Positions 4,113-17,325 of a stretch of DNA of 20,918 nucleotides are shown here, piece by piece. Numbering within the stretch: the first letter of the stretch is position 1; every line of letters begins with the position of its first letter. Source of the DNA: Prevotella sp. UBA3294 (lineage in GTDB: Bacteria > Bacteroidota > Bacteroidia > Bacteroidales > Bacteroidaceae); the NCBI GenBank assembly GCA_002361535.1, contig DETG01000004.1, forward strand, positions 1 through 20,918, written 5' to 3'. The position numbers and the translations under genes were made by a program. The notes below the pieces were generated by a model. That model did not search any database. It had not been told where the DNA came from and saw nothing but the letters and a program-made list of their open reading frames with translations.

Positions 4113-4123
4113 TGTTGTTGTGT

Positions 4124-4270
4124 TTTCTTTGTGTAAAGAAACAAACATTTCTTTGTCAAAGAAACAAACCTCATTCCTCTTTTCTTTGGTGCAAAGAAAA
4201 CTTCATTCTTCATTCTTTCTTTGATGCAAAGAAAATTTCTCTGTCACTCTTTTCTTTGGCGCAAAGAAAA
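4124..4270. repeat. Left cluster of five TTTCTTT/AAAGAAA palindromes
   Basis: Five short palindromes lie at 4124-4141, 4148-4164, 4180-4200, 4216-4234 and 4250-4270. Each has arms TTTCTTT and AAAGAAA around a variable centre of 3-5 bases (GTGT, GTC, GGTGC, GATGC, GGCGC). They start 11 bases after the GH31 stop. Each could form a hairpin in RNA or bind a dimeric protein in DNA. The fifth is also the outer end of the 155-bp element. Confidence 0.85.
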
Positions 4271-4403
4271 GAGACAAAAGAAACATCCACCCCTACCAAA
4301 CCTCCCCCTATATGGGGAGGCTTAACCGCTCCCTCCTGTCGCTCTTTCACTAAGGTACCTCAGGGCATCAAAGCCCTGAGGTGCTTTTTTGTCGGCTGGC
4401 GCA
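4249..4403 (+). repeat. 155-bp structured repeat element, left copy
   Basis: This segment matches, as reverse complement, the segment at 4889-5044 over nearly the same length. In order it has a TTTCTTT/AAAGAAA palindrome (4250-4270), a hairpin with stem CCTCCCC/GGGGAGG and loop CTATAT (4301-4320), the conserved text 'GCTCTTTCAC' (4341-4350), and a terminator-like hairpin with loop ATCAAA (4357-4382) followed by TTTTTTGTCGGCT. The right copy keeps the loops but changes both stems in a paired way, so structure appears conserved. No coding potential was seen. Confidence 0.75.
4357..4390 (+). terminator. Rho-independent terminator-like hairpin within the repeat element
   Basis: A perfect 10-bp stem (ACCTCAGGGC at 4357-4366 with GCCCTGAGGT at 4373-4382) encloses the loop ATCAAA and is followed by GC and six T. 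It could end the GH2-GH31 transcript, although it lies 245 bases after the stop codon. The same hairpin shape recurs, reversed, in two more copies nearby. Confidence 0.7.
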
Positions 4404-4526
4404 TAGCTCCTTAATTGTGACACTTGTCTAGTGTCAAATTTCAATTATCAAATATCAATCAAAAGGAGCGACTTGGCTTTAGTCGGCTTACACCTGTACA
4501 TTGGGACGAGAAGTTTTCCGCATGGC

Positions 4527-4645
4527 ACTCCCCTCCCTTGTAGGGGAGGGGCAGGGGTGGGGTCAGTAACTTGACACAAATGAATATATACAGACCTCAC
4601 CCCACTCTTCGAGCACCCCTCCCCTTGATGGGAGGGGAGGGGCTG
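4527..4645. repeat. Inverted pair of G-rich REP-like hairpins with a G-quadruplex motif
   Basis: The left arm (4527-4566) has a CCCCTCCC / GGGGAGGGG hairpin with loop TTGTA followed by a GGGGTGGGG run. The right arm (4591-4645) is the same design reversed, with loop TTGAT. The two face each other across about 24 bases. At 4543-4562 four runs of four G follow with 1-2 base spacers, a textbook G-quadruplex pattern on the plus strand. The layout resembles paired bacterial REP sequences; no REP-associated transposase lies in the window. Confidence 0.75.
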
Positions 4646-4780
4646 CGCGATAGCTCTCAATAACAAGAGTTACTTTTTCATGCGGACTCAACCCCTCACT
4701 ACTTTACACTATCCCATTTCCTCCTTTCAATGATCTCTTTTCAATGATTATCTTTTCTAATATAACCTTATCTATCGCCA

Positions 4781-4833
4781 TGCGTAAGCCGACAAAAAAC
4801 AAGTTGCCCCTTTGATGGGGCGAGCTTACCTTT
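4781..4833 (-). repeat. Partial third copy of the structured element (ATCAAA hairpin part)
   Basis: Read on the minus strand this has AAGGTAAGC, stem GCCCC/GGGGC around loop ATCAAA, a T-run and GTCGGCTTACGCA. It is nearly identical to the hairpin end of the copy at 4889-4942, and both point the same way. The outer GTAAGC/GCTTAC bases can also pair. It lacks the CTATAT hairpin and the TTTCTTT palindrome. Confidence 0.75.
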
Positions 4834-4839
4834 GTTTAT

Positions 4840-4873
4840 AGTTCATAGTTCATAATTCATAGTTCATAATTCA
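4840..4873. repeat. Heptanucleotide tandem repeat (AGTTCAT/AATTCAT)
   Basis: About five consecutive 7-base units alternate between AGTTCAT and AATTCAT. They lie between the partial and complete copies of the structured element. Confidence 0.75.
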
Positions 4874-4888
4874 ATGATCAACGTACAT

Positions 4889-5044
4889 TGCGTAAGCCGA
4901 CAAAAAAATCAAGCCGCCCCTTTGATGGGGCGAGCTTACCTTAATGAAAGAGCGACGGGAGGAGCGGTTGAGCCTTCCCATATAGGGGAAGGACGGGTTG
5001 GGGTGGATGTTTCTTTTGCTTCTTTTCTTTGCGCCAAAGAAAAG
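4889..5044 (-). repeat. 155-bp structured repeat element, right copy (inverted)
   Basis: This is the reverse-oriented partner of 4249-4403. On the minus strand it starts with the TTTCTTT/AAAGAAA palindrome (5023-5043), then a CCTTCCC/GGGAAGG hairpin with loop CTATAT (4973-4992), GCTCTTTCAT, AAGGTAAGC, and the GCCCC/GGGGC hairpin with loop ATCAAA followed by a T-run and GTCGGCTTACGCA. One stem pair is C-G in the left copy and T-A here. The lower hairpin stem differs from the left copy on both sides but still pairs. Confidence 0.75.
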
Positions 5045-5101
5045 AATGATTGAAGTTTGTTTCTTTACACAAAGAAATGAAAGTTTCTTTACCCAAAGAA
5101 A
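5023..5101. repeat. Right cluster of three TTTCTTT/AAAGAAA palindromes
   Basis: Palindromes at 5023-5043, 5060-5077 and 5084-5101 have the same arms as the left cluster with centres GCGCC, ACAC and ACCC. They end seven bases from the mntP stop codon. As RNA hairpins on the minus strand they may help end the mntP transcript; that role is an inference. Confidence 0.8.
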
Positions 5102-5107
5102 AGGATG

Positions 5108-5683
5108 TTATTCAAGAAGATGCTCGGATAAAATCTTGATGCCTATAGCGATTAAGATCAGTCCACCCAACAACTCGGGTTTCAGTCGGCTACGGATGGC
5201 ATGACCTAAGCGGATGCCTAATTCATGACCGAGAAGTCCGAAGAAAAACGAGACCATACCGATGATGACGAGGGGAGCGGTGAGATCGCTGATGCGCTTA
5301 TATCCCATGCACGACAGGGAGACACCCACGGCAAGGGCGTCGATGCTCGTTGCCACAGCAAGGGTAAGCTGCGTAAGCAGTAGGGTGGGGTTGAAGTGAT
5401 GTTCTTCCTCTTTAGAGAAAGCCTCGCGAATCATGTTGATACCTAAGAAGACGAGTAGGGCAAAGGCGATCCAATGGTCGTAAGCCTCTATCTGTTCGGT
5501 GAAGTGGGAGATACCGAACCATCCGATCAAGGGCATCATTGCCTGGAAGAGTCCGAAGAGGAAACTGATCCTCAGGATCACGCCCCATATCCTGCGTTGC
5601 AGGATCACCCCGCTCACGATAGATACCGTGAAGCAGTCCATGGCTAAGGCTACAGCCAGCACCCATAGTTCTATATCATTCAT
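5108..5683 (-). CDS. mntP: Manganese efflux pump MntP
   Basis: A 191-residue inner-membrane protein of the MntP (formerly DUF204) family, which exports Mn2+ and protects against manganese excess. It has about six hydrophobic helices and the two family motifs: 'LAMDCFTVS' near the N-terminus and 'ATSIDALAVGVS' in the second half. The ATG at 5683 was chosen because it places the key aspartate at residue 16, as in E. coli MntP. An ATG lies directly upstream at 5686, and a TTG at 5701 is too close to the promoter to be likely. The gene stands alone, with repeats downstream and a divergent LRR gene upstream. The promoter at 5712-5743 leaves about 20 bases of leader, too short for the yybP-ykoY riboswitch that controls mntP in some bacteria. 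Confidence 0.93.
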   Translation of the reverse strand: MNDIELWVLAVALAMDCFTVSIVSGVILQRRIWGVILRISFLFGLFQAMMPLIGWFGISHFTEQIEAYDHWIAFALLVFLGINMIREAFSKEEEHHFNPTLLLTQLTLAVATSIDALAVGVSLSCMGYKRISDLTAPLVIIGMVSFFFGLLGHELGIRLGHAIRSRLKPELLGGLILIAIGIKILSEHLLE

Positions 5684-5711
5684 CATGATGTTTTCAATCA
5701 ATTGGATGGCG

Positions 5712-5743
5712 CGAAGGTACGAAAAATCTGGGAGATAAGCAAA
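5712..5743 (-). promoter_or_regulatory. Probable mntP promoter
   Basis: On the minus strand, TTTG (5740-5743) is followed after 20 bases by TACCTTCG (5712-5719). This is one mismatch from the Bacteroidota TTTG-N19-TAnnTTTG consensus. Transcription would start near 5705, about 20 bases before the chosen ATG. Confidence 0.6.
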
Positions 5744-5802
5744 AAATTCAGTGTGTTAACAATCTTTAAGTGGTTGGTAATCAATCATAACTATATATTT
5801 TG

Positions 5803-5810
5803 TACATTTG
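5803..5810 (+). promoter_or_regulatory. -7 promoter box for the LRR gene
   Basis: TACATTTG matches the Bacteroidota -7 consensus TAnnTTTG exactly and lies 29 bases before the ATG at 5840. The -33 box is poor: a TTGG at 5774-5777 is too far away (25 bases). Transcription would start near 5815. Confidence 0.55.
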
Positions 5811-5839
5811 CATAGAGTAATCATTAAAATGTAAATGAC

Positions 5840-8281
5840 ATGAAAACGAACCGACTAACCCATTCCATGCGAATGTTCACGGCTGTTGCCGTGTTGATGA
5901 TATGTGCAACCCTTTGGGCCGACGTTACCCCTGGTAGCAATAGTGATCCGGAGTATTTCGATGAAGTATATAACGGTATCAAACTGAGGTATCAGGTTCA
6001 CAGCGATTTTGAAGGATATGTCAACGTCATGGGATTCGCCGATGCTGCAGGAAAGAATTTCGAAGGCGAACTCGTTATTCCTGCTACGATCACCCATGAG
6101 GGAAAGAGGTACACCATTTTTGACATCAGCGGATACGCTTTCTACTACAATGGCAAATTCTCCAGTGTAGTTATCAAGTCGGTACACAGAATCAACGAAT
6201 CGGCGTTCGATCATTTGGATAAGTTACAATCCGTGACGATCGAGTCTATCTACAAAATGAATTCAGGCTATTATCCGGAGGGTGGTATTAATAGGAATGC
6301 CTTCTTCGCCTGTAACAATCTTATGACGGTGACACTGCCCAGACAGCACAACAATGAAAACACTCCATATTTCATTCATCAAGATGCTTTCGTTAGTGGC
6401 AAAATCAAGTCGTTTACCGTCACTAACAGCAATCCAAGTCTGAAAGGTGCCTATTACTCTTCCAATGACGTCCTGTTCTTATACAGCGCAGACGGTCAGA
6501 GAATGCTCTATATGTATCCTGAAACCAAGACCCAAACATCCTACACCATTCCCTCCAACGTGACGTCTATGAGGTACGAATCAATGTCCTGGAACGGGAA
6601 CCTGAAGACAGTGGTGGTGCCAGAGGGCTTCACGGAGATTCCGTCAAGTGCTTTTAGAGGGTGTACGAATCTTGAAAACGTTACGCTTCCCAGGAGCTTG
6701 AAGAAAATCGACCAGAGTGCATTCAACCAGTGTTCCAGTCTGACAAGTATCAAGCTGCCCTATCAATTAGAGGAGATCAGAAGTGATGCTTTCTCGGGAA
6801 CAGCGTTGACCGACGTGGTGGTGAAGAATCCGACCGTTCCGATTTGCGATGGTGATGCCTTCGATGGCATTGAATCGCAGATCCACCTGTATGTGCCCGT
6901 GGGCTCTGACTATGCGCAGTGGGAACCGTGGAGCCGCATGACTATCACCGAGACCAACGACGTGTACGACAAGTATGGCGTCAGCGTGGCTGGGATCGAC
7001 GTGAACGAAGTCAACTACAATGACGTACTGGGCGACGGTACGGTGAAATTCAGACTCCCTAACATCCTGACGATGAACAATGCGACAATCTACGTTCCCG
7101 CCGGAAAGGACGGTATCGTGAACAGCGGCGTCGATGATCTCATCATCCAGCTCACTGGAACCAATAAGATCATAAGTCTTAACAACGATGCCCTCATCTT
7201 CGAAAAACCTACCACCCTCTCTGGAGATTTACTGTTCGCGATGGGCATGACCAGTCTGAAAGGCAGTTCGGTGTATTTGTTCAATAAGGCCACGCAGTTA
7301 GTGGGTTCAAAGGTGTTCGACATCAGTACCAACCTCACCGTCAGTGGTCTTAGCACCCTGATAGCGACTTCTATGTCGCAGATGGGAACGGTGAAGGGAC
7401 TAAGTATCGGTTCCGGCAATGAATTGATTGCCTTGCAAGATGGGCACACCATCACCTATGATGCCACAACAGGCTATTTCAAGGATAACGGACAGTACAT
7501 GACGGGCGAGAAGAGTCTCGGCATCGGAGTGTACTATCCGCTCTACTACAACGGCTATCAGCTGAGTTCGGTGAGCAGTCTGTTAACTGATGAATACGAT
7601 GTCATTGAAGAATATGACGAGGAGGTTCCCGGACTGCGGCTTCGCGGCACGCTGAACGCTACCAGCACAAAAACGCTCTTCCGCTCGGAGGCTGATAATC
7701 TGATCATCGAGCTGACGGGCGACAGTGAGCTGAATACCACTCAAGAGAATGTCACGATGAAGCTCAATGGTAACACGACGATCTGCGGCGAAGGGAAGCT
7801 GACGTTGAAGAACCAGAGTGGTACGGCTATCTGGATGAACGGTCCCTCCACACTCACACTGAAAGACATCGATTTCGACATGACGGCTCTGTTCTCCATC
7901 TATGGGAGCATTGGTACCACTGCGGATGACGATACGGAGTATCTTTCTACGGTGGTGATGGATGATGTGAGCGGCACGATGTACTCCCCACAAGGTGCTT
8001 CGTGCATCATCGATGTCAACAACCTTATCTGCAACGGCTGCTATTTCCTGAATCATGTTCAATTCAACAGTCAGCAGCACAGAGTGCCTGCCAGTCAGCT
8101 GCAAGTGGTAAGAGGGGAGGATCCCAACGCGGTGGTAACTGCTATCGGGGAGGCACCACATCAAGAGATCACGGTGAATGGCAAGGATGGGGTGTACTAC
8201 GACTTACAAGGTCGGCGCGTGATGACACCTGAACAAAAGGGTATCTATATCAGTAATGGACGCAAGGTGATCGTGAGGTGA
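5840..8281 (+). CDS. Secreted BspA-like leucine-rich-repeat protein
   Basis: 813 residues. A signal peptide covers about residues 8-27. Residues ~95-370 hold LRR_5/BspA-type repeats, seen in phrases such as 'IPSSAFRGCTNLENVTLP' and 'IDQSAFNQCSSLTSIKLP'. Residues ~380-690 carry two related beta-rich modules, each with a 'D(D/N)LII(Q/E)LTG' core (431-440 and 619-627), resembling beta-helix carbohydrate-binding modules; that resemblance is tentative. The tail 785-813 ('YYDLQGRRV...GIYISNGRKVIVR') is the short C-terminal pattern common on exported Prevotella proteins and probably related to type IX sorting domains. BspA-like proteins bind host matrix proteins or other bacteria at the surface, so adhesion is the likely but unproven role. 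It has its own promoter, divergent from mntP. Confidence 0.82.
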   Translation: MKTNRLTHSMRMFTAVAVLMICATLWADVTPGSNSDPEYFDEVYNGIKLRYQVHSDFEGYVNVMGFADAAGKNFEGELVIPATITHEGKRYTIFDISGYAFYYNGKFSSVVIKSVHRINESAFDHLDKLQSVTIESIYKMNSGYYPEGGINRNAFFACNNLMTVTLPRQHNNENTPYFIHQDAFVSGKIKSFTVTNSNPSLKGAYYSSNDVLFLYSADGQRMLYMYPETKTQTSYTIPSNVTSMRYESMSWNGNLKTVVVPEGFTEIPSSAFRGCTNLENVTLPRSLKKIDQSAFNQCSSLTSIKLPYQLEEIRSDAFSGTALTDVVVKNPTVPICDGDAFDGIESQIHLYVPVGSDYAQWEPWSRMTITETNDVYDKYGVSVAGIDVNEVNYNDVLGDGTVKFRLPNILTMNNATIYVPAGKDGIVNSGVDDLIIQLTGTNKIISLNNDALIFEKPTTLSGDLLFAMGMTSLKGSSVYLFNKATQLVGSKVFDISTNLTVSGLSTLIATSMSQMGTVKGLSIGSGNELIALQDGHTITYDATTGYFKDNGQYMTGEKSLGIGVYYPLYYNGYQLSSVSSLLTDEYDVIEEYDEEVPGLRLRGTLNATSTKTLFRSEADNLIIELTGDSELNTTQENVTMKLNGNTTICGEGKLTLKNQSGTAIWMNGPSTLTLKDIDFDMTALFSIYGSIGTTADDDTEYLSTVVMDDVSGTMYSPQGASCIIDVNNLICNGCYFLNHVQFNSQQHRVPASQLQVVRGEDPNAVVTAIGEAPHQEITVNGKDGVYYDLQGRRVMTPEQKGIYISNGRKVIVR

Positions 8282-8306
8282 TTTCCCCTCCAAAAGAGCA
8301 GGAAAA

Positions 8307-8490
8307 GTGCAAGACTGTTGCACGAAGTGTGCAAGGCTTTTGCACTAAGTATGCAGACCCTTTGCACAAGTTGTGCAAAGGCTCTGCACAATCTGTGCAG
8401 AACCGTTGCTCATATTATGCACAACTTGTGCAGATTTGTTACTCATATTTTGCACAACTTGTGCAGATTTGTTGTTCGTATTGTGCACAA
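8307..8490. repeat. Array of TGCACAA/TTGTGCA palindromes
   Basis: About eight palindromes follow one another after the LRR gene stop: 8307-8323, 8318-8334, 8341-8355, 8361-8379 (9-bp perfect arms), 8385-8399, 8418-8432, 8451-8465 and 8481-8490. The core is TGCACAA-N-TTGTGCA. The last units repeat every 33 bases together with a GATTTGTT spacer. Short frames crossing the array are products of the repeat and are not called as genes. Confidence 0.85.
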
Positions 8491-8501
8491 ACTTACAGTA
8501 C

Positions 8502-8548
8502 AAAAACACCAGCAGCTATATGCCTCTTGATGGGAGCATATAGCTGCT
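8502..8548 (-). terminator. Terminator for the C10 protease gene
   Basis: A 13-bp perfect stem (8511-8523 with 8536-8548; AGCAGCTATATGC and its complement) has a 12-base loop. On the minus strand it is followed by GGTGTTTTTG. It lies about 120 bases after the protease stop codon. The stem may also act on the plus strand, but no T-run follows there. Confidence 0.65.
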
Positions 8549-8594
8549 GATGGTATAGACGGGCTCTTGTGAAGAGAAGTTTACATAGTCAATT

Positions 8595-8682
8595 ACTTAA
8601 TCACGACCTTGAACTTCGTTCGAACTCGTTCACGCTCGGGAGTGTAAACAAACTTGCACTTCTCTCACTTAATCACGACCTT
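8595..8682 (-). repeat. Duplicated C-terminal coding scrap flanking a 56-bp insert
   Basis: The 16-base text ACTTAATCACGACCTT occurs at 8595-8610 and again at 8667-8682, where it encodes the last residues (KVVIK) of the protease. The outer copy in minus-strand frame also reads F-K-V-V-I-K followed by TAA. The frame between the copies stays open and reads 'FVYTPERERVRTKFKVVIK' before that stop. It looks like a remnant of a second gene tail or a small inserted repeat. Confidence 0.6.
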
Positions 8683-11600
8683 CTGTCTGTTCATGATATA
8701 CACACCCTTTGCCTTCGGTTTGCTGTTGAGCTTCTTACCATCCAACGAATACCACTGTTTTGTACCGCTTTGGACTCCTACTCCATCCAGACCGGTAACA
8801 ATGCCGTTTCCAAGGATGGTGATGGTTGACTCCTGTAAGTCAGTGCTATGACTAACTGCATTCACATCAGAGATAGCGATGTTCTTCAGCAGCAATGGGT
8901 ATTCGCCAGCATTGAGTTCTGGATTAACATGGATGGTTACCAATGCCACCTCGCCATCATTGCCGCTGATAGAAGAACCATTGGTGGAAGCTGCCAGTAC
9001 GCGCAGAGAGCCATCCTGCTGAATCACAGCATCGAAGCTGTTGGTCTTCCGTGAGTTGGTACGTTCTGTACTCAGACTAACCTCGGCAAATCCATCCGCA
9101 TCGGTTACAAATGTCATACCATCTGGCAGATAGAGATCGAATTCAAAGCCTTCAGCCTCAACAGCATTCTTCATCTTCACCGACAAGGTGACTTCCGACT
9201 GTCCCTGAACGCTAACAGGTTCTATATAGAGATAGTTCTCATTGGCAGGAGTTCCACTCAGCATCATATACGGTCTTGCCCCTGCGGTATTTGTTGGCTT
9301 CGTCACAGAGCCATATAAGATAAGGTGTGCGATAGCGGTGAGGTCGCCCACATCAATCTTGTTGTCCGTATTGGCATCAGCAGCCTTCTGGTGGAACTTT
9401 TCTGGCGTGCGGTTCAACAGGTGGTGTGCTGTTGCGGTGAAGTCAGCCACATCTACCTTCTTGTCAATGTTTGCATCACCAATAGTATAGGTATTTACCT
9501 TGATGGTACTTGTCGTTATCGGTGAGGAATGGCTCGTTGCGTTCTCGTCAGAGATGGCGATGTTCTTAAAGCATACTGTATAATCACCTTCAATCATATC
9601 ATCGGCTAAGGCCACTTTCACCTGAACAACCTCACCATCATTACCGCTGATGGCAGAGCCGTTGGTGGATGCAGCAAGTACACGTAGTGAACCGTCAGCA
9701 TTGAATACCGCATCGAAGCTGTTGGTCTTACGAGCTGTCGTTCGCTCCGTACTCAGCGTCACCTCAGGGAATCCATCCTCATCCTCCACCACTGTAATAC
9801 CTTCAGGCAAATACATATCGAACTCGAATCCCTCTGCCACCACCGCATTCTTCATCTTCACGGACAGCACTGCCTCTGTACCGCTCAGCACCTCCATGTC
9901 GTTCATGTAGATGGTGTTGTCGTAGTTAGGCACTTCGGTGGAGGTAATGGTGATATTGACATCCATCTTTTCAACAGTGCTATTGGCTACATCATATTTG
10001 TATGTGATTCTTTTGGGGATTGATGTGGTTGAGAACAAGAGTGTTCCGTTTACCACTGTTGGAACTACACTAACGTTATCCACTTTAAATTCTGAAACTC
10101 TGGAGATGTCAAAGTTTGTTGGTAACGAAATGTTGTACAAATTGGAACCGGTTGATAATGCAGATAAGCTGTGGTAGCATCCCAATGATGTCAAATTTGG
10201 ATTATCTGACAAGTCCAAACTCGCATGCTCATAATAACCGCAATGCAAATTTCTCAATGCCGTACACCCCGACAAGTTTAGGCACGTCAGCTGATTGTTG
10301 TCGCAATATAAACTTTCAAGTGCTATGTTCTTTGACACATCAAGGCTCGTAAGAAGGTTGTGGGAACAACCCAGTTGTGTAATTGCAGTGTTCTTAGACA
10401 CGTCAAGGCCTGTCAACTGATTATTAAAGCAATACAATTCAGTTATTGCAGTATTTTTTGACACATCAAGGTTTGTCAGCTGATTTTTGTGGCAATACAA
10501 TTCGATAATTGCTGTGTTCATGGACACATCAAGGCTCGTCAACTGATTGTCGTGACACCATAACCTATTCAGTTCTGTATTCTTCGACACGTTAAGGCTC
10601 GTCAGATTGTTTCTATTGCAGTACAATTGTTTTATTGCAGTGTTCTTAGACAAATCAAGGCTTGTCAGTTTGTTGTTTTGGCAGCCTAATGAATCTGATA
10701 AAGCAATGTTTTTAGACACGTCAAGGCTCGTCAATTTATTCGAAGAACAACCTAATGAAGTAAGTGCTGTATTATTAGTCACATCAAGAACAGTCAGTCG
10801 ATTTGCGCAGCAATTCAGATGAGTCAACATTGTATTCTTGGATACATCAAGGCTGGACAACCCGTTATAATGACAGTCAAAATACTCAAGTTCCGTATTC
10901 TTTGTTACATCAATACTGTTTATGCTCCAATTATATCCACAGTCCAAATATGTCAATGCTGTGTTATGGGTTACGTCAAGGCTGGTCAACCTATTAGAAT
11001 GACAATCCAAATGAGTAAGAGCCGTGTTTCGAGTCACGTCAAGGCTGGTTATCTCATTATTCCCGCACTTTAGGGTCGTCAAACAATTGAAGAATTCAAT
11101 GCCTTTTAGACTTGCTATTTTATTTGTCCAATAATCATTATTGCTGACACTTACATCAATAGACTTGATTGACAACAGCTTCTCATCACTAATCGTTCCT
11201 CCTTCTGCCACACCTGTGAGATTTGAGATATATGCACGGAAGGTGTCATCTGGGAAATTGGTGGCATTAAGGATAACGCCATTGCTAGATTGCACATCGT
11301 CTGTAATTAGCAATTTGATGTAGCCTACATATAACACATTGTTATTTGAGTCAACAATCTCCACTTTGATGAGCGGTTCATGGTCAATTGCCTCACGAGT
11401 TGCAGGTACTTGTTCAAGGGATGAACCATTCTCATTGTATCTTATAGATTGAGGAGTCAGAATCACTTGCTCATAGCCAAAGTCTGCGGTTGCATTTACT
11501 TTGGGCTCGATTGATATATGACGAGACTCACCTGTAGCGTGATTACCATCCTCATAGTCAACAACAGAGAACGCATACCTCAGTCCTAAACTCTTAAAGG

Positions 11601-13737
11601 TTGCAGCATCCATTACCTGACTATATTCAGTCCACTTTGACTTTTTCCCAATATATGTAACGTGTGTTTCAATAAATGGCAGGATATCAAGAGTCTTGTT
11701 ATAAGGAATAGAGTGAGTAAAGTCGGCATCGATAGCCTGATTAGCATTTTTGTACATTGTTCCTGCATTCTCATTTCTCTTGGATGGCCAATTCTCATCT
11801 GTGGTCAAACAATCCAACACTTTGCTCTCTGGCTTGTTGTCCACAATACCATTAATGAGTAAAAATGCGTGAATGACGGGAGCCTTTTCTGATGTAATGG
11901 TAGGCTCGCCTTCTTTCGTTAGCTGAAGAGATATGAAATTAACAGAATCTTTATAAGTCTCTTCATCAACTCTGTCGAAATAGTACCATAGATCTTCTAC
12001 GTATTTCCCCCAGTCAGATAACTTGAAAGGAACTATCAGCACACCACCTTCCACATTGTATTTACTACCATCGCGGTCAATAGGACTGGCAAAATTATCA
12101 GCCATGCTATTCTCATAACCTGTATTCTTCATTTCTATCTTTCCGGTAGCAATCTTTGTTGATGTACTAAAGTCTATAGTATAGCCGTTCGGCGAGAAAG
12201 AGGCAGGGCTCACTTGGTAAGTTGCTGTAACAGCTGGTACGATCTTAGCGGTCTTTAAGGCTGCAAATTTTGAAATAAAGTCACGATAGAGAGGCAGCAT
12301 GGTTCCTTCAATAGGTTCACCTGGATATTCGTAACCACTCATGGTCGCAGGATCCCACTGCAAAGCGGGGAAAGTTGCTATAGGAGCATTCCCACCATCA
12401 TCGAAGCGCCAGCCAAGACCTTCCAGTTTCTTACCCTTATTATCAATATAGTAATAAGCCTCTTTCTTAGAGTTAACATCTTTAGCATAGATTACCGGCT
12501 GATAATATAGAGCTGGAACTTCAAAAGATTGTAATCCATTTTCAAATATAGGTGTCAAAGTGATCGTATTATCGATGGCTGGTTCTGCCCCAATCATTGC
12601 CTGTTGACTACTATTGTAGCCACCTGATGACCCACCAGTACCTTGGTCTTGTGGAGTGAGGTCGGACAGAAGGAAATAGGTGTCGCAATAGCCGCCCCAT
12701 CCCCAGTTGATGTGGTAGTAACCATCACTGTCGTAGCCATCGCATACAAAGGCATGACCACCACCTGATGAGGTTACACCACTATAGAAAACAGGACGAT
12801 GGTTTGAAAGTTCATTGTAGATCAGGTTATCCCAACTATCATTTGTATAGTTATCACGGCTTACCAACTGAGTGTTGTCACTATAACCAAAATATGTTTT
12901 CAATGCTTCGGGCACATCTTCAGAATAAGCACCCGACCCACCATTCTCACCATTGGCATAGTTCATGGATACCGATGCACCGCAATAGAACATCAAGTCA
13001 GCAACAGCCTTCTTCTGGGTTGCAGTTTCAGAGCCAGTATAGTTTGTGAGCATATTATTCCAATCGATGACAGAACCTGCAGGAACTGCAGCTACAGAAA
13101 TCTGCTGTGCTCCTGCTTCGGAGTTCCATTTTGACCTACATGTATAGGCTGGAATAGTAGCGGATATCTGACTGACAGAACGGTTTCGATGGTAATACAT
13201 AATCTGTGCCATGGCTGTTGCTACACAACCAGTCACGCTCTTTCCGTATGTAAAGAAATCAGGGCAGCTCTGGTTATATGGATCATCTTGGTCCCAAGTT
13301 GTCGTCATCAAAGGTGATATGGCCGCATGGGTGGAAGTGATTGGAGTACTGCCTTTAATTCCTTGTTCCTGGATATAACTAATCTGCTTGTCATAACTAT
13401 CCAACCAGGCTTTCAGATTGGCAGGCATGGCTTCAATCAGAACCGTGCCACGACTGGAATAGCCTAAGATGGCAGGAACCTGATCATCGGCTGATGCAAT
13501 GACAAAACCTTCGTTATTCCCAACGTTGAACACAAAGTAGTTCTTTGAGGTGGTGCCCTTTGACGAAATGTCGTGCAAAGCCGACTTTGCCACCGTTTTC
13601 CCTTTCTTCTTCAGGAAATCCATTACATTCTGCTGAGCCTGCTGGGATGTGATGGGAGAAGCAAATGCCGTTCCAAGTGGAATGACACTGCTCAGAATCC
13701 AAAGGATCAGCATGGTGAAGGTGATTCTCTGTTTCAT
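8665..13737 (-). CDS. Secreted C10 cysteine protease with LRR array and cohesin-like/dockerin/cohesin-like domains
   Basis: 1690 residues. Residues 1-27 are a signal peptide and ~28-135 a C10-type propeptide ('FVIASADDQVPAILGYS'). The peptidase C10 (streptopain/interpain) domain spans ~140-385, with Gln150 (oxyanion), Cys171 in 'VTGCVATAMAQ', His328 in 'GGGHAFVCDGY' and 'HINWGWGG' at 342-349, so it looks catalytically complete. Residues ~390-815 are unassigned. About 14-15 leucine-rich repeats of 21 residues fill 886-1190, with a cysteine at one fixed position. Two near-duplicate cohesin-like beta domains (~1274-1415 and ~1500-1640) flank a dockerin type I pair (1418-1477) with intact calcium loops. 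The tail 1662-1690 is a short sorting-like sequence. Family members are secreted and cleave host or competing-microbe proteins. A terminator follows at 8502-8548 and a structured leader precedes it. The order of domains is unusual; the catalytic call is firm. Confidence 0.88.
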   Translation of the reverse strand: MKQRITFTMLILWILSSVIPLGTAFASPITSQQAQQNVMDFLKKKGKTVAKSALHDISSKGTTSKNYFVFNVGNNEGFVIASADDQVPAILGYSSRGTVLIEAMPANLKAWLDSYDKQISYIQEQGIKGSTPITSTHAAISPLMTTTWDQDDPYNQSCPDFFTYGKSVTGCVATAMAQIMYYHRNRSVSQISATIPAYTCRSKWNSEAGAQQISVAAVPAGSVIDWNNMLTNYTGSETATQKKAVADLMFYCGASVSMNYANGENGGSGAYSEDVPEALKTYFGYSDNTQLVSRDNYTNDSWDNLIYNELSNHRPVFYSGVTSSGGGHAFVCDGYDSDGYYHINWGWGGYCDTYFLLSDLTPQDQGTGGSSGGYNSSQQAMIGAEPAIDNTITLTPIFENGLQSFEVPALYYQPVIYAKDVNSKKEAYYYIDNKGKKLEGLGWRFDDGGNAPIATFPALQWDPATMSGYEYPGEPIEGTMLPLYRDFISKFAALKTAKIVPAVTATYQVSPASFSPNGYTIDFSTSTKIATGKIEMKNTGYENSMADNFASPIDRDGSKYNVEGGVLIVPFKLSDWGKYVEDLWYYFDRVDEETYKDSVNFISLQLTKEGEPTITSEKAPVIHAFLLINGIVDNKPESKVLDCLTTDENWPSKRNENAGTMYKNANQAIDADFTHSIPYNKTLDILPFIETHVTYIGKKSKWTEYSQVMDAATFKSLGLRYAFSVVDYEDGNHATGESRHISIEPKVNATADFGYEQVILTPQSIRYNENGSSLEQVPATREAIDHEPLIKVEIVDSNNNVLYVGYIKLLITDDVQSSNGVILNATNFPDDTFRAYISNLTGVAEGGTISDEKLLSIKSIDVSVSNNDYWTNKIASLKGIEFFNCLTTLKCGNNEITSLDVTRNTALTHLDCHSNRLTSLDVTHNTALTYLDCGYNWSINSIDVTKNTELEYFDCHYNGLSSLDVSKNTMLTHLNCCANRLTVLDVTNNTALTSLGCSSNKLTSLDVSKNIALSDSLGCQNNKLTSLDLSKNTAIKQLYCNRNNLTSLNVSKNTELNRLWCHDNQLTSLDVSMNTAIIELYCHKNQLTNLDVSKNTAITELYCFNNQLTGLDVSKNTAITQLGCSHNLLTSLDVSKNIALESLYCDNNQLTCLNLSGCTALRNLHCGYYEHASLDLSDNPNLTSLGCYHSLSALSTGSNLYNISLPTNFDISRVSEFKVDNVSVVPTVVNGTLLFSTTSIPKRITYKYDVANSTVEKMDVNITITSTEVPNYDNTIYMNDMEVLSGTEAVLSVKMKNAVVAEGFEFDMYLPEGITVVEDEDGFPEVTLSTERTTARKTNSFDAVFNADGSLRVLAASTNGSAISGNDGEVVQVKVALADDMIEGDYTVCFKNIAISDENATSHSSPITTSTIKVNTYTIGDANIDKKVDVADFTATAHHLLNRTPEKFHQKAADANTDNKIDVGDLTAIAHLILYGSVTKPTNTAGARPYMMLSGTPANENYLYIEPVSVQGQSEVTLSVKMKNAVEAEGFEFDLYLPDGMTFVTDADGFAEVSLSTERTNSRKTNSFDAVIQQDGSLRVLAASTNGSSISGNDGEVALVTIHVNPELNAGEYPLLLKNIAISDVNAVSHSTDLQESTITILGNGIVTGLDGVGVQSGTKQWYSLDGKKLNSKPKAKGVYIMNRQKVVIK
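9307..9486 (-). other. Dockerin type I calcium-binding repeat pair (within the protease gene)
   Basis: Residues 1418-1477 hold two copies of the dockerin pattern D-x-N-x-D-x-x-(I/V)-D-x-x-D. The residues are D1421, N1423, D1425, D1429, D1432 and D1454, N1456, D1458, D1462, D1465, each followed by a hydrophobic helix (TATAHHLL, TAIAHLIL). All ligand positions are present. It lies between two cohesin-like domains. Confidence 0.75.
10177..11082 (-). repeat. 63-bp tandem repeats encoding the LRR array
   Basis: The DNA repeats every 63 bases, with texts such as GACACATCAAGG and GTCAGCTGATT recurring, encoding 'LTSLDVSKNTAxTxLxC..N' units. One unit is 21 codons, so recombination between units would keep the frame. 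The central units are most alike and the outer ones more diverged. Confidence 0.85.
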
Positions 13738-13776
13738 AATCTTGAGCTTTGATTGACTAAGATACGCCTATAGACA

Positions 13777-13903
13777 CCCAGATTCGGCAGAAAAAGTCTC
13801 GGTTATATAAACGCGAAAGACGTGGGAGTCTCTACTTCTCGCTTATCCCACATCTGGGCTCTCGCATTGCCTTGCATCAGGATAAGCAACTCGAGTTAGC
13901 CCA
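13777..13903 (-). promoter_or_regulatory. Structured 5' leader of the C10 protease gene with competing stems
   Basis: On the minus strand AGCCCAGAT (13860-13852) can pair upstream with TGGGCT (13898-13903) or downstream with ATCTGGG (13777-13783); the two pairings share bases and exclude each other. The upstream stem is extended by CTCG/CGAG and TGC/GCA. The downstream stem encloses a GTGGGA/TCCCAC hairpin (13822-13827 with 13846-13851). This resembles an attenuator or riboswitch layout; no known class was recognised and function is unproven. Confidence 0.45.
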
Positions 13904-13929
13904 CGCCATGATACATTATACAGATTGTC

Positions 13930-13937
13930 CAAAATTA
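13930..13937 (-). promoter_or_regulatory. -7 promoter box for the C10 protease gene
   Basis: On the minus strand this reads TAATTTTG, a full match to TAnnTTTG. The expected -33 region has only GGTG about 18 bases upstream. Transcription would start near 13922, giving a leader of about 185 bases that contains the competing stems. Confidence 0.45.
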
Positions 13938-13941
13938 GATG

Positions 13942-14340
13942 AACAGGGTATAATACACCTAACGCGGACGTTTCGGTTGCGCTTCTTCCGATGCTTGAAT
14001 TTGCGAGATTCAGATGTAGAAGATAACGTTCGTAAACGTCCTATTCCAACGAAAATACGACCAGTCAGCCTATGAGGTCAACTGATACGATGCAAAAATA
14101 ATGAATAATCCTGTAACTGCCAAAGAAATCTGAAGAAAAGTGATGCGAAAGGTAACCAAATGATTGGTTAGATGATCTGTTTGCGCACCCAAGGATTTGT
14201 TTGATTCTGAATTAGATTTTGTTGGATTTGCTTTTCCCCGTAGGCAGCGACCGTTGGTTCTTGCGGTAGGCGACAAAGAATTCGTCAAATTTGTCTAATT
14301 CGTAGAGAAGAAAACGAACATGGATGGCACGGATCCAACG
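13942..14340. other. Non-coding stretch between the protease leader and the symporter terminator
   Basis: No convincing gene is present. Short frames on either strand have no recognisable motif and atypical composition. There is an 8-base inverted repeat, GGACGTTT at 13966-13973 with AAACGTCC at 14034-14041, and an intergenic repeat at 14288-14308. Confidence 0.5.
14288..14308 (-). repeat. Dispersed 'CTCTACGAATTAGACAAAT' repeat, copy 1
   Basis: This 21-base segment is an exact reverse complement of 18629-18649. It lies just after the symporter terminator on the minus strand. A related, diverged copy lies beyond the other end of the symporter gene at 15797-15824. Confidence 0.75.
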
Positions 14341-14343
14341 GAT

Positions 14344-14377
14344 AAAAAAGGACGAAACGGGTCTCCGTCTCGTCCTT
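14344..14377 (-). terminator. Rho-independent terminator of the symporter gene
   Basis: On the minus strand, AAGGACGAGACGG pairs with CCGTTTCGTCCTT (13-bp stem with one G-T pair) around a 4-base loop and runs into TTTTTT. It lies 20 bases after the stop codon. Confidence 0.85.
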
Positions 14378-14397
14378 ATGGTAATAAATTCTTGTAT

Positions 14398-15783
14398 TCA
14401 CTCATCGTTCATATCCTTATCCAGTTGTCCTTCCCACAGATAGTGCTTAGTTTCTTTTACCAGCACACCACTGAGGAAGAGTAGGGAGAGGAGGTTGGGG
14501 ATGGCCATGAGTGCATTCATGCAGTCTGCGAGGTTCCACACCACCGCGAGGTTCATCACGGCACCGAAGAAGATAGCGAGGATATATAGGATACGGTAGA
14601 TATTCTTAGCCTGGAACTTTGATTCTGGCGATTGCTTCCCTAGGTTTCCTAAATACTCCACAGCACGTTCGCCATAGAGTTCCCACCCCAGGATGGTAGA
14701 GAAGGCGAAGGTGAGCAGTCCGAAGGTGAGCAGGGGTGCACCGATATAGGGTATCTTACTGAATGCCACCTTGGTGAGGGTGGCTCCGTTCTCGTACGAG
14801 ATATCGGGATAGGCGATGACACTGCTCACGATGACCAGTCCGGTAAGGGCACAGATCACCACGGTGTCCCAGAAGGTACCGCTGGATGATACCAAAGCCT
14901 GACGTACGGGGTTGCGCGTCTGTGCTGCTGCCGCTACGATGGGCGCACTACCCATACCCGACTCGTTGGAGAACAGACCGCGGGCAATACCGAAGCGGGC
15001 GGCCATCATCACCGTGCTCCCTGCAAAGCCGCCACCAGCTGCCTGTGGGGAGAAAGCCGATTCGCAGATGAGTTTCAAGGCTGGCCATACATATTCACCG
15101 TTCATGAAGAGGATGATGATGCAGCCGATGACATAGAAAAAAGCCATGAAAGGAACGAGCATGGTGCAAACCCGGGCAATACTCTTGATGCCGCCTAACA
15201 CCACGGCACCTGTGAGGAGCATGATGACAATGCCAGTGATATAGGGAGAGATATGGTAGGTCTCGTTGGTAAGAGTGGCAATGGCGTTGGCCTGTACGGT
15301 GTTACCGATGCCGAAGGAAGCGATGGCAGTGAACAGGGCGAAGAGGATGGCCATGCCTTTCCATCCCAAACCGCGCTCCAAGGCGTACATCGGACCGCCT
15401 AACATCCTTCCGTCGGCGGTCTTTTCACGGTATTTCACGGCTAACAGACCTTCGGCATACTTCGTGGAGATGCCAAACAGACCGGTAAGCCAGCACCAGA
15501 GGACGGCACCGGGACCACCCAGGGCCACAGCGGTAGCTACGCCCACGATGTTACCAGTACCGATGGTGGCGGCGAGTGCGGTGGCTAAGGCCCCGAACTG
15601 CGACACGTCACCTTTCGATCCCTTGTCTTTCTTGATGCTCAGCCGAATGGCAGTCCATAAGTAACGCTGCGGGAATTTCAATCGGATCGTTAAGAACAGG
15701 TGCGTTCCCAACAGTAATATGATCATTGGCCAGCCCCAGAGGAGACCGCTTATGTCTGTCAATAATTCATTAATCTGGCTCAT
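14398..15783 (-). CDS. AGCS family sodium:alanine/glycine symporter
   Basis: A 461-residue inner-membrane transporter with about ten or eleven hydrophobic helices. It carries family landmarks 'ATIGTGNIVGVATAVALGGPGA' (in part; residues 72-93), 'LTGLFGISTKYAEGLLA' (99-115) and 'FSNESGMGSAPI' (271-282). The family imports alanine or glycine with sodium. Length is typical and no part is missing. The gene is single, with a strong terminator at 14344-14377 and a 118-base gap to the DUF4230-type gene upstream. No clear promoter of the Bacteroidota type was found in that gap. Family assignment is firm; which amino acid it carries is not visible. Confidence 0.93.
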   Translation of the reverse strand: MSQINELLTDISGLLWGWPMIILLLGTHLFLTIRLKFPQRYLWTAIRLSIKKDKGSKGDVSQFGALATALAATIGTGNIVGVATAVALGGPGAVLWCWLTGLFGISTKYAEGLLAVKYREKTADGRMLGGPMYALERGLGWKGMAILFALFTAIASFGIGNTVQANAIATLTNETYHISPYITGIVIMLLTGAVVLGGIKSIARVCTMLVPFMAFFYVIGCIIILFMNGEYVWPALKLICESAFSPQAAGGGFAGSTVMMAARFGIARGLFSNESGMGSAPIVAAAAQTRNPVRQALVSSSGTFWDTVVICALTGLVIVSSVIAYPDISYENGATLTKVAFSKIPYIGAPLLTFGLLTFAFSTILGWELYGERAVEYLGNLGKQSPESKFQAKNIYRILYILAIFFGAVMNLAVVWNLADCMNALMAIPNLLSLLFLSGVLVKETKHYLWEGQLDKDMNDE

Positions 15784-15796
15784 GTTGCTTGTTCTT

Positions 15797-15824
15797 CTCT
15801 ACGAGTTTGTCGAATTAGACGAAT
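15797..15824 (+). repeat. Dispersed 'CTCTACGA' repeat, copy 2 (diverged)
   Basis: It begins CTCTACGAGTTTGTCGAATT and ends AGACGAAT, related to the copies at 14288-14308 and 18571-18649. It lies 14 bases upstream of the symporter start codon and, with copy 1, flanks that gene in inverted orientation. Confidence 0.55.
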
Positions 15825-15856
15825 GATGTCGTTATTGATTCTATGTCCAATTACAT

Positions 15857-15919
15857 TCTTCACTCTTCACTCTTCATTCTTCACTCTTCACTCTTCACTC
15901 TTCACTCTTCACTCTTCAC
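15857..15919. repeat. Nine-unit heptanucleotide tandem repeat (TCTTCAC) covering a stop codon
   Basis: Nine consecutive 7-base units (TCTTCAC, one of them TCTTCAT) run through the last codons and TGA stop of the DUF4230-type gene at 15902. On the minus strand the unit reads GTGAAGA. Three units make 21 bases, so every frame meets TGA within the array. Changes in copy number would alter only the last few residues. Confidence 0.9.
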
Positions 15920-16660
15920 TATTACCTTAATATTCTCATGTCCCATGGATCGCATGAGTTGATAGAATTGGCGGGTGGCATTATCTTCGGCACTGGCGAT
16001 GTTCTCTTTAGTCATGCAGCGATCCTTCATCTTATGGTAAGCGCGTTGATACATTGCCTCACGGTCGGCATCGGTCCATTTGCCCGACTCGTAGAATGAC
16101 TGGGTGCGGGCTTCATCGATGAACTTCTCGTCAAGGAGTTTGATGGGAGGGAGCGTTACCATGATGGAGTCTTTCTCCTTCTCAATCCAGTTTTCCTGTA
16201 CATCATTCATGTCGATGCCTAAGCGGAGTGTACCGTAATAGATACGGATGAGCTGGTCGTCGGTGAAGAAACCGTTGCGGATGGTATCAATCATCTCCTC
16301 GTCGGCGATGGCGAGGAACTCCCATTGTCCGATGTCTTTCATCGACTTGATCTGTGTGGGGGTGACACCGATGCGTTGGTCAATCTCGACATTGGCGTTG
16401 GCATCAGTCACGGTATGGAACAGATAGTAGGTGACACCTAAAGCAATAGCCACCAGGGCAAGGATGGCAATGACGGTCCACTTGCTGGCTTTGCCGATCA
16501 TCTCGAACAAGGCTGTGAGCACATCCTCAATGCCTTTTGTGATCTCCTCCTGTGTGGCGTCGGCAGCCTGCTTTGTCTCCTTGGACTTGTTGGCAGACTT
16601 CTTCGTCACTGTGGTCTTCTTTTTCTTGGATGTCGAAGGGGTGGTATCTGGCTTGGTCAT
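15902..16660 (-). CDS. DUF4230-type single-pass membrane protein
   Basis: 252 residues. The N-terminal ~60 residues are rich in lysine, serine and threonine and probably cytoplasmic. One membrane helix lies at 61-81 ('WTVIAILALVAIALGVTYYLF', in part), and the rest should face the periplasm. The outer part has the pattern of DUF4230: 'YYGTLRLGIDMNDV', then 'DSIMVTLPPIKLLDEKFID', then a helical stretch ending 'GHENIKVIVKSEE'. Function is unknown. Its ATG overlaps the stop of the upstream gene by four bases (ATGA), indicating translational coupling with a second DUF4230-type protein. The C-terminus and stop codon lie inside a 7-base tandem repeat. Family call is by pattern recall. Confidence 0.75.
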   Translation of the reverse strand: MTKPDTTPSTSKKKKTTVTKKSANKSKETKQAADATQEEITKGIEDVLTALFEMIGKASKWTVIAILALVAIALGVTYYLFHTVTDANANVEIDQRIGVTPTQIKSMKDIGQWEFLAIADEEMIDTIRNGFFTDDQLIRIYYGTLRLGIDMNDVQENWIEKEKDSIMVTLPPIKLLDEKFIDEARTQSFYESGKWTDADREAMYQRAYHKMKDRCMTKENIASAEDNATRQFYQLMRSMGHENIKVIVKSEE

Positions 16661-17325
16661 CGTGCGAAAGATTTTGAGTCAAACAATTTGGGGAGGTCTC
16701 TTAAGGTGAACTCCTTACGGAACGTAATTGTGATGTTCTCCTCGGCATAGCCCATGGCCACGATCATGGGGACGAGGGTCTTGGTGGCACTGGCCTGAGC
16801 CATCGGGAGAATACCCATGCGGGGAATGTCGTTCACGATGGCTGCCCGTCCTTGATTCTCGTAGCTGGCCATCTCGGCATCGGAGAAGTTGGAACGGAGA
16901 ATCGATACCTGTTTCTTGATCTCGGCATGGTTGATCTTGCTGCTGGTGAGCTCCACCACGGGATCGGGAAGGATGATCTCGATCTTGTCACCATGGCGTT
17001 TGACATTCTTTTTGGTGAATTGACTGAAATCGATGGATGCTTTCAACGTGGCATCCATGGGAATGGCAATCTTCCGCTGTCCTACTGGCAGGGTGATATT
17101 GAACTCTTTCTGCAGGAAGGAGCCCTTGAGCTTCATCTGGTCATCGTGGGTCACGATCTTATGGACGTGATATTCAGCGGTATAGAGCTTGGCACATTTC
17201 TGTATCTGCATCACCATCATGGGGATGGTGTCGATGGGCTCTGGCTCTGGCACTGTAGGCTTGTTGTCACCGCAGGATGCCATGAGGAGCAGGGAGAGTA
17301 GGGCAAACCATATTGTTTGTTTCAT
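16657..17325 (-). CDS. DUF4230-type lipoprotein
   Basis: 222 residues. A lipoprotein signal ends at 'LLMASC' with Cys18, followed by Gly-Asp-Asn, which fits export to the outer membrane or cell surface in Bacteroidota. The body follows the DUF4230 layout: 'ATLKASIDFSQF', 'DKIEIILPDPVVELTSSKIN', a helical middle, and 'NITITFRKEF' near the end. It is the first gene of a two-gene operon and overlaps the next gene by four bases. A well-formed promoter lies at 17400-17431. Because both proteins share the fold but differ in anchoring (lipid versus membrane helix), they may work as an envelope pair; that is an inference. Confidence 0.75.
   Translation of the reverse strand: MKQTIWFALLSLLLMASCGDNKPTVPEPEPIDTIPMMVMQIQKCAKLYTAEYHVHKIVTHDDQMKLKGSFLQKEFNITLPVGQRKIAIPMDATLKASIDFSQFTKKNVKRHGDKIEIILPDPVVELTSSKINHAEIKKQVSILRSNFSDAEMASYENQGRAAIVNDIPRMGILPMAQASATKTLVPMIVAMGYAEENITITFRKEFTLRDLPKLFDSKSFAR

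What the first reader, a model, noticed from the sequence alone, without database searches (positions are those of the whole stretch)
8665..13737. C10 protease joined to LRRs and a cohesin-like/dockerin/cohesin-like block
One 1690-residue secreted protein has a complete C10 catalytic domain (Cys171, His328), a ~15-unit 21-residue LRR array, and two near-duplicate cohesin-like domains around an intact dockerin pair. Cohesins and dockerins normally sit on different proteins to build complexes. Having both in one chain could allow self-assembly into fibres, intramolecular closure, or docking with other dockerin- or cohesin-bearing surface proteins. Known facts: C10 proteases cleave host proteins; cohesin-dockerin pairs bind through calcium. 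The assembly idea is inference.
Basis: partly seen in the sequence, partly recalled or inferred. Interest (0 to 1): 0.7.

Follow-up and report, generated by a model that had tools for sequence, protein, structure and literature searches.

The report
Protease with built-in docking block
A Prevotella-type bacterium encodes a large secreted protease whose tail end carries a plug and two sockets in one chain, and in related bacteria the same parts can lie on neighbouring genes, which suggests a way of hanging different proteins on the cell surface by plug-and-socket docking.

The parts
8665..13737 (-). whole gene, 1690 aa: signal peptide - I69 propeptide - C10 protease - unassigned region - LRR - cohesin - dockerin - cohesin - tail
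13660..13737 (-). Sec signal peptide, residues 1-26 (read by eye, no predictor run)
   Evidence: sequence itself
13381..13662 (-). Inhibitor_I69 / Spi-type propeptide, residues 26-119
   Evidence: Pfam PF13734, 1.2e-23
12673..13296 (-). C10 catalytic domain, residues 148-355; Cys171 codon 13225-13227, His328 codon 12754-12756
   Evidence: Pfam PF01640; alignment to streptopain
11260..12576 (-). residues 388-826, no Pfam or NCBIfam match at E <= 1 in the whole-protein scans
10195..11082 (-). LRR array, residues 886-1181, 14 units of 21-22 residues with a cysteine in each
   Evidence: (Internalin J 2.8e-58)
9496..9921 (-). cohesin domain C1, residues 1273-1414
9310..9489 (-). dockerin D, residues 1417-1476, two calcium-loop repeats with matching recognition positions
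   Evidence: Pfam PF00404
9241..9309 (-). linker D to C2, residues 1477-1499, low predicted confidence in its core
8815..9240 (-). cohesin domain C2, residues 1500-1641
8668..8754 (-). short C-terminal tail of the type that tracks T9SS (SprA) in this family, residues 1662-1690

Best explanation
The C-terminal third is a docking-and-anchoring cassette. The dockerin D is a working, calcium-loaded, two-fold symmetric plug; C1 and C2 are sockets of one specificity; the short tail sends the chain through the type IX secretion system. In this protein D is most likely seated on C2 of the same chain (joined by a flexible 23-residue linker), which leaves C1 as an open socket next to the protease and LRR arms. 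In relatives the same bond joins two proteins: a tail-less protein ending in C-D plugs into a separately made, tailed cohesin protein with its own signal peptide. Shown by tools: the domains, the recurrence of the module, the split genes, the segregation of the tail, the tail/SprA association. Predicted: the cohesin folds and D placed on C2. Inferred: calcium-dependent binding, surface location, C1 free as an acceptor, LRRs as substrate or target binders for a propeptide-controlled protease.
For: Cohesin fold for C1 and C2 models (by their titles all 50 rows listed for the C2 model are cohesins or cohesin-bearing scaffoldin chains). AF2 on D-linker-C2: pTM 0.88 despite 12 residues under pLDDT 50; a free D should give about 0.6 (own estimate). 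Module C-D-C in 118 of 121 proteins (the window protein counted twice, as P0001 and P0002), C1-D spacing 2-4 residues in 117 of 118. Split genes: of 58 adjacent pairs, 23 are tail-less with D then tailed with C, 13 tailed then tail-less with D; 38 of 49 multi-gene runs have exactly one tailed gene; 57 of 58 second genes have a signal-peptide-like start; 12 of those 57 starts overlap the preceding stop as ATGA. Tail versus SprA: 106 both, 5 SprA only, 4 tail only, 36 neither of 151 genomes (recounted in 105; Fisher 7e-25). SprA in the own genome. Dockerin repeats agree at positions that vary between proteins (18/51 in 92%, 22/55 in 85% of 109 chains) while neighbouring positions do not (20/53 7%, 23/56 5%), the signature of dual-mode dockerins (PMC5429695, PMC8063739, passages). 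C1 resembles C2 of its own chain more (0.537) than C2 of other chains (0.455); the within-chain agreement is stronger on strands 3, 5, 6 and 8 than elsewhere (p 0.003).
Against: No coordinates were available, so the face used by D in the model was not seen. The whole block gives only pTM 0.65, so the placement of C1 is open. 22 of 69 tail-less D genes have no detected partner next to them (two of these, L107 and L183, have a tailed neighbour with a sub-threshold cohesin match). 5 of 49 multi-gene runs show no tailed gene, 6 of 58 pairs are tailed-tailed and 11 tail-less-tail-less; 15 chains end in D and still have a tail. The ATGA overlaps lie mostly in pairs whose first gene is the tailed one, not in the tail-less D then tailed C pairs. 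The cohesins of split genes do not sort cleanly into C1-like and C2-like (p 0.11). Over random pairs C1s of different chains are as alike (0.561) as C1 and C2 of one chain (0.537). Covariation statistics are not corrected for descent; gene conversion could make C1 and C2 alike. The tail matches no NCBIfam model, and C1 no Pfam family.
Confidence: 0.6

Rival explanations
1. Self-closed stalk: D seats on C2 in cis for good, and the whole block is only a calcium-rigidified spacer between the protease/LRR arms and the outer membrane. C1 is a leftover copy.
For: Tailed C-D-C genes make up 21 of the 55 runs with a single cohesin/dockerin gene; confident D-C2 placement; the own genome has only one other, divergent cohesin.
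Against: Split genes in relatives would make the bond intermolecular; C1 keeps the same conserved residues as C2 and agrees with it on the binding sheet, which a leftover copy need not do.
Confidence: 0.17
2. Fibre or network: D of one chain binds a cohesin of the next, giving head-to-tail polymers, based on a tailed cohesin anchor.
For: C-D units carry one plug and one socket; L099 holds three C-D genes followed by one tailed C gene and L097 two, as expected for repeating units plus an anchor; dockerin symmetry would suit exchangeable cohesins.
Against: No dimer could be modelled; in the fused chain the local C2 should outcompete other chains (inference); none of the listings or passages seen mentions such fibres.
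Confidence: 0.15
3. Ligand binding: the beta-sandwich domains bind glycans or host protein, and the dockerin is a mere calcium knob.
Confidence: 0.06

Closest known systems
Type I cohesin-dockerin pairs of cellulosomes (e.g. CaCohA2-CaDoc0917, 6kgf)
   Different: Sequence identity 16% in that alignment; plug and sockets on one chain; T9SS-type tail; few cohesins and dockerins in the genome.
Non-cellulosomal cohesins of Clostridium perfringens (2jh2, 2vo8) and Archaeoglobus fulgidus (2xdh)
   Different: Other phyla. That they lack a C-D-C unit and a T9SS tail, and that C. perfringens joins secreted enzymes with them, is recalled.
Interpain A / streptopain (peptidase family C10)
   Same: Propeptide and catalytic domain align (query 54-387 to streptopain, 66-363 to interpain A); Cys and His kept.
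   Different: The matched PDB chains are constructs of 251-380 residues; that the full-length proteins lack the LRR-cohesin-dockerin-cohesin extension is recalled.
Internalin J LRR
   Same: LRR match to 3bz5 at 2.8e-58; 21-residue repeats with a cysteine per repeat (the cysteine ladder of InlJ is recalled).
   Different: Listeria protein without protease or docking block (recalled).
Ruminococcus flavefaciens RflaF_05439 (NlpC/P60-like cysteine peptidase repeats with X-dockerin; PMC3573020, abstract read)
   Same: A cysteine-peptidase-type module joined to a dockerin in a rumen bacterium.
   Different: Different peptidase superfamily; two tandem modules and an X-dockerin dyad only, no cohesin in the chain.
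Dockerin proteins reported in rumen Prevotella MAGs (PMC7480376, passages read)
   Same: Dockerins in Prevotella; the passage says the role of dockerins in such settings is not defined.
   Different: No cohesin partner, split genes or sorting tail in the passages seen.

Membership tests
Peptidase family C10 | C10 catalytic domain with Cys/His pair | tested here: met
   PF01640 212 bits against cut-off 26; Cys171 and His328 aligned
Peptidase family C10 | Proteolytic activity and zymogen processing | not testable with these tools
   needs biochemistry
Cohesin | Nine-stranded cohesin fold | tested here: met
Cohesin | Over the Pfam PF00963 cut-off | tested here: not met
   C2 22 bits against 24.1; C1 no match. 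A relative exceeds it: L096 tailed partner 27.5 bits
Cohesin | Binds a dockerin | tested here: inconclusive
   prediction only, pTM 0.88 for D-C2; no binding data
Dockerin type I | Two calcium-loop repeats, over cut-off | tested here: met
   PF00404 24.4 and 30.5 bits against 22.9; repeats
Dockerin type I | Matching recognition positions in both repeats (internal symmetry for dual mode) | tested here: met
   principle from PMC5429695 and PMC8063739 (passages); the exact positions are recalled
Cellulosome | Scaffoldin with many cohesins plus dockerin-bearing plant-wall enzymes | tested here: not met
   the own genome (80.7% complete) has three cohesin matches and one dockerin over the cut-off
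T9SS cargo | Genome encodes the translocon | tested here: met
   SprA at G000:C27, 2636 bits; other T9SS parts not searched
T9SS cargo | Recognised C-terminal sorting domain model | tested here: inconclusive
   no NCBIfam match at E <= 1 for 22 tails, but presence tracks SprA
T9SS cargo | Secretion depends on T9SS | not testable with these tools
   needs mutants

The most novel reading that the evidence does not exclude
A sorting signal that works in trans: in these Prevotella operons, large tail-less proteins ending in cohesin-dockerin are exported and held at the surface only because their dockerin plugs into a neighbouring cohesin protein that carries the type IX sorting tail; C-D units can stack on such an anchor into chains, and the window protein is the all-in-one form in which cargo, plug, socket and tail are fused.
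Probability: 0.35. Interest if true: 0.82.

Novelty: new variant of a known kind. Interest (0 to 1): 0.62.

Why it matters
One rumen study found dockerin proteins in Prevotella and called the role of dockerins in such settings undefined (PMC7480376, passages); another states that cohesins and dockerins were absent, consistent with other Bacteroidetes genomes (PMC5831590, passage). The present data give such dockerins local partners, a genetic logic (plug gene next to socket-and-tail gene) and direct tests. If the tail-less partners really leave the cell with a tailed carrier, type IX secretion could move complexes or use a sorting signal in trans; I saw no description of that in the listings and passages. 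It would also supply natural, self-contained cohesin-dockerin pairs from Gram-negative gut bacteria.

Tried and rejected
Frameshifted or mis-assembled fused genes as the cause of the split: rejected in general, because 57 of 58 second genes have their own signal-peptide-like start and 19 of 21 tailed single-cohesin proteins carry 194 or more residues after the cohesin, against 49 in the window protein. It may hold in single cases: in L136 a tail lies in an overlapping other frame. Lipoprotein anchoring of tail-less partners: 1 of the 64 tail-less genes that could be judged has a lipobox-like motif, 14 could not be judged. Split cohesins as clean C1-like and C2-like types: only a trend (16 of 21 tailed cohesins score higher with the C2 model, tail-less ones 21 of 41; p 0.11). 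Similarity of the two cohesins within a split operon: higher than between operons (0.340 against 0.238, p 5e-5, 19 pairs), but carried by about six pairs and confounded by descent. Plasmid spread: no match of the block in 72,556 plasmid records. Spread over the phylum: of 296 genomes only the own one holds the full-length block at E <= 1e-10; the other 8 match a part, mostly the dockerin. Weak dockerin matches at C60 and C36 lie in frames that look like TonB-dependent receptors by eye and were taken as chance. In the fold comparisons the listed rows cover the cohesins, not the dockerin.

Selection effects: the 121 proteins are the 120 listed of 352 hits found with the block as query, plus the window protein (which is also the cluster P0002), so the C-D-C share is biased upward. 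The 94 loci stand for the listed rows other than the window; weaker matches are not listed there and were not examined. Seven tail calls that two rules disagreed on were settled by hand. The signal-peptide and start calls are a simple script rule. A comparison of pairs chosen for divergent C1s (0.557 within a chain, 0.473 C1-C1) is biased by that choice and is not used as evidence.

Full report
What is there. The window lies on contig C108 of a 2.73-Mb, 133-contig genome of 80.7% completeness. Two same-genus genomes have contigs of the same length as records titled Prevotella sp. (G171:C10 22,984 bases and G223:C114 107,224 bases), so the genus is taken as Prevotella (inference). The minus-strand ORF 8665-13737 encodes 1690 residues. 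Pfam places an I69-type propeptide (26-119), a C10 protease (148-355), LRRs and a dockerin (1420-1473). Streptopain and interpain A align over propeptide and catalytic domain, with Cys171 and His328 kept in the streptopain alignment. The LRRs resemble Internalin J (2.8e-58): 13 units fit a 21-residue pattern plus one of 22 residues, each with a cysteine. Residues 388-826 match nothing at E <= 1.

A recurring module. A search with the C-terminal block found 352 proteins; 120 were listed. With the window protein added, 118 of 121 contain cohesin-dockerin-cohesin in that order, 109 of them as exactly C-D-C (the window protein is in twice, as P0001 and P0002). The C1-D spacing is 2-4 residues in 117 of 118; the D-C2 linker is 16-35. 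The parts in front vary by the Pfam accessions listed: C10 protease in 8 of 120 rows (one being the window's own cluster; 5 of the 8 also bear LRR_4), BspA-type LRRs, bacterial Ig-like domains, RCC1 repeats, an alpha-amylase domain (most names recalled from the accession numbers). The query biases these counts.

Split genes. A cohesin profile was run on 299 same-genus genomes; 140 have a match. The listed matches fall, beside the window, into 94 loci, which were fetched and scored for cohesin, dockerin and tail. Of 162 ORFs, those whose last domain is a dockerin lack the tail in 67 and have it in 15 cases (1 open); those whose last domain is a cohesin have it in 65 and lack it in 11 (3 open). 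There are 58 adjacent same-strand pairs within 200 bases: 23 tail-less with D followed by tailed with C; 13 tailed followed by tail-less with D; 11 both tail-less; 6 both tailed; 3 tailed followed by tail-less C; 2 others. Of 49 multi-gene runs, 38 have exactly one tailed gene, 6 more than one, 5 none. Examples: L096 (963-aa frame ending C-D with BspA-type LRRs, then a 423-aa frame with signal, cohesin and tail), L097 (two C-D genes, one anchor), L099 (three C-D genes, one anchor). Second genes have a signal-peptide-like start in 57 of 58; 12 of the 57 starts overlap the upstream stop as ATGA, mostly in pairs where the tailed gene comes first. 22 of 69 tail-less dockerin genes had no cohesin or dockerin gene beside them. 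The own genome has one such neighbour pair too: on C94, a frame of 1878 residues with a dockerin and, 18 bases downstream, a frame of 2730 residues with a signal-like start, divergent cohesin and tail. Domains that are fused in some genomes and sit on adjacent genes in others are likely to bind each other (inference).

The tail. The last 29 residues belong to a tail found 43 times in the own genome and in 110 of 151 family genomes. SprA, the type IX translocon, is in 111 of the same 151, the own genome included. Both occur in 106, neither in 36; SprA alone in 5, tail alone in 4 (recounted; Fisher p 7e-25, not corrected for descent). No NCBIfam model matches the tail, so its role as a T9SS signal rests on this association and on its position. 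Known type A signals are seven-stranded domains with an almost invariant, functionally important lysine (PMC10994853, passages); whether a lysine of this much shorter tail corresponds to it was not tested.

Does D bind the cohesins? The block 1271-1690 gave mean pLDDT 87.8 and pTM 0.65. D-linker-C2 alone, 225 residues with the linker core under pLDDT 50, gave pTM 0.88. A freely tumbling D would cap pTM near 0.6 (own estimate), so the model places D firmly against C2. In 109 C-D-C chains the dockerin repeats agree at positions that change from protein to protein (18/51 I-I, T-T or S-S, 92%; 22/55 N-N or H-H, 85%; 15/48 72%), while positions between them do not agree (20/53 7%, 23/56 5%). Internal symmetry of this kind supports two binding orientations in clostridial dockerins, and the partner face is the 8-3-6-5 sheet (PMC5429695, PMC8063739; passages). 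In 37 less redundant chains, the agreement of C1 with C2 beyond chance is greater on the strands taken as 3, 5, 6 and 8 (0.260) than on the other strands (0.103) or loops (0.147), p 0.003, and highest on strands 6 and 5 (strand numbers assigned from the model). Over random pairs of chains, C1 and C2 of one chain are 0.537 identical, C1 and another chain's C2 0.455; C1s of different chains 0.561. This fits two sockets kept to one specificity by one plug; gene conversion and common descent are possible alternatives.

Mechanism. Most likely the chain is exported by T9SS, D seats on its own C2, and C1 stays open beside the LRR and protease arms, ready for dockerins of other chains. In split relatives the same bond links a tail-less cargo to a tailed carrier. 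Whether the carrier also takes the cargo through the outer membrane, or only holds it there, is open. The protease is presumably made as an inactive precursor and aimed by its LRRs; nothing here tests its substrate.

What is known. Cohesins and dockerins outside cellulosomes, LRR surface proteins, C10 proteases and T9SS cargo are all known kinds. Ten paper searches were run (listings seen); of nine papers opened I saw passages of seven, the abstract of one, and in one the terms found nothing. In these I found no description of a C-D-C unit with a T9SS-type tail, nor of split plug and socket-with-tail genes in Bacteroidota. One study reports dockerin proteins in Prevotella MAGs and calls the role of dockerins in such settings undefined (PMC7480376); a rumen metasecretome study assigned some cohesin and dockerin sequences to Bacteroidetes families by best hit (PMC4035507); a third found none and called that consistent with other Bacteroidetes genomes (PMC5831590). 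I file this as a new variant of non-cellulosomal cohesin-dockerin assembly. In the phylum sample only the own genome of 296 has the full block; the closest named relatives are in records titled Prevotella, Prevotellaceae and other Bacteroidales.

Noticed in passing
window 5840-8281 (+): BspA-type LRR_5 protein (813 aa) ending in the same kind of C-terminal tail (8192-8278, third row of the tail matches listed), convergent with the protease gene.
   Followed up: partly
L192 (G000:C94) 3497-17323 (-): In the same genome: an 1878-residue frame with a dockerin and, by eye, a tail-like end, followed 18 bases later by a 2730-residue frame with signal-like start, divergent cohesin and tail.
   Followed up: partly
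L195 (G000:C107) 5076-6800 (-): The only other C10 protease found in this genome (575-residue frame): has the tail but no cohesin or dockerin match.
   Followed up: partly
151 genomes of the family: A 30-residue C-terminal tail not matched by NCBIfam tracks SprA closely (106 both, 36 neither, 5 and 4 discordant); it could serve as a marker for T9SS cargo in Prevotella-like bacteria.
   Followed up: yes
L149: Four consecutive genes: C-D-C with tail, D-C with tail, tail-less C-C-D, C with tail, perhaps a larger surface assembly.
   Followed up: no
P0025, P0041, P0042, P0059: Relatives with three to five cohesins around one dockerin.
   Followed up: no
L096-L189, ends of tail-less C-D proteins: A number of them end in -EPQ, -DPQ or -DPE, several shortly before the next start codon; unexplained.
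   Followed up: no
window 15902-17325 (-): Two tandem DUF4230 genes.
   Followed up: no
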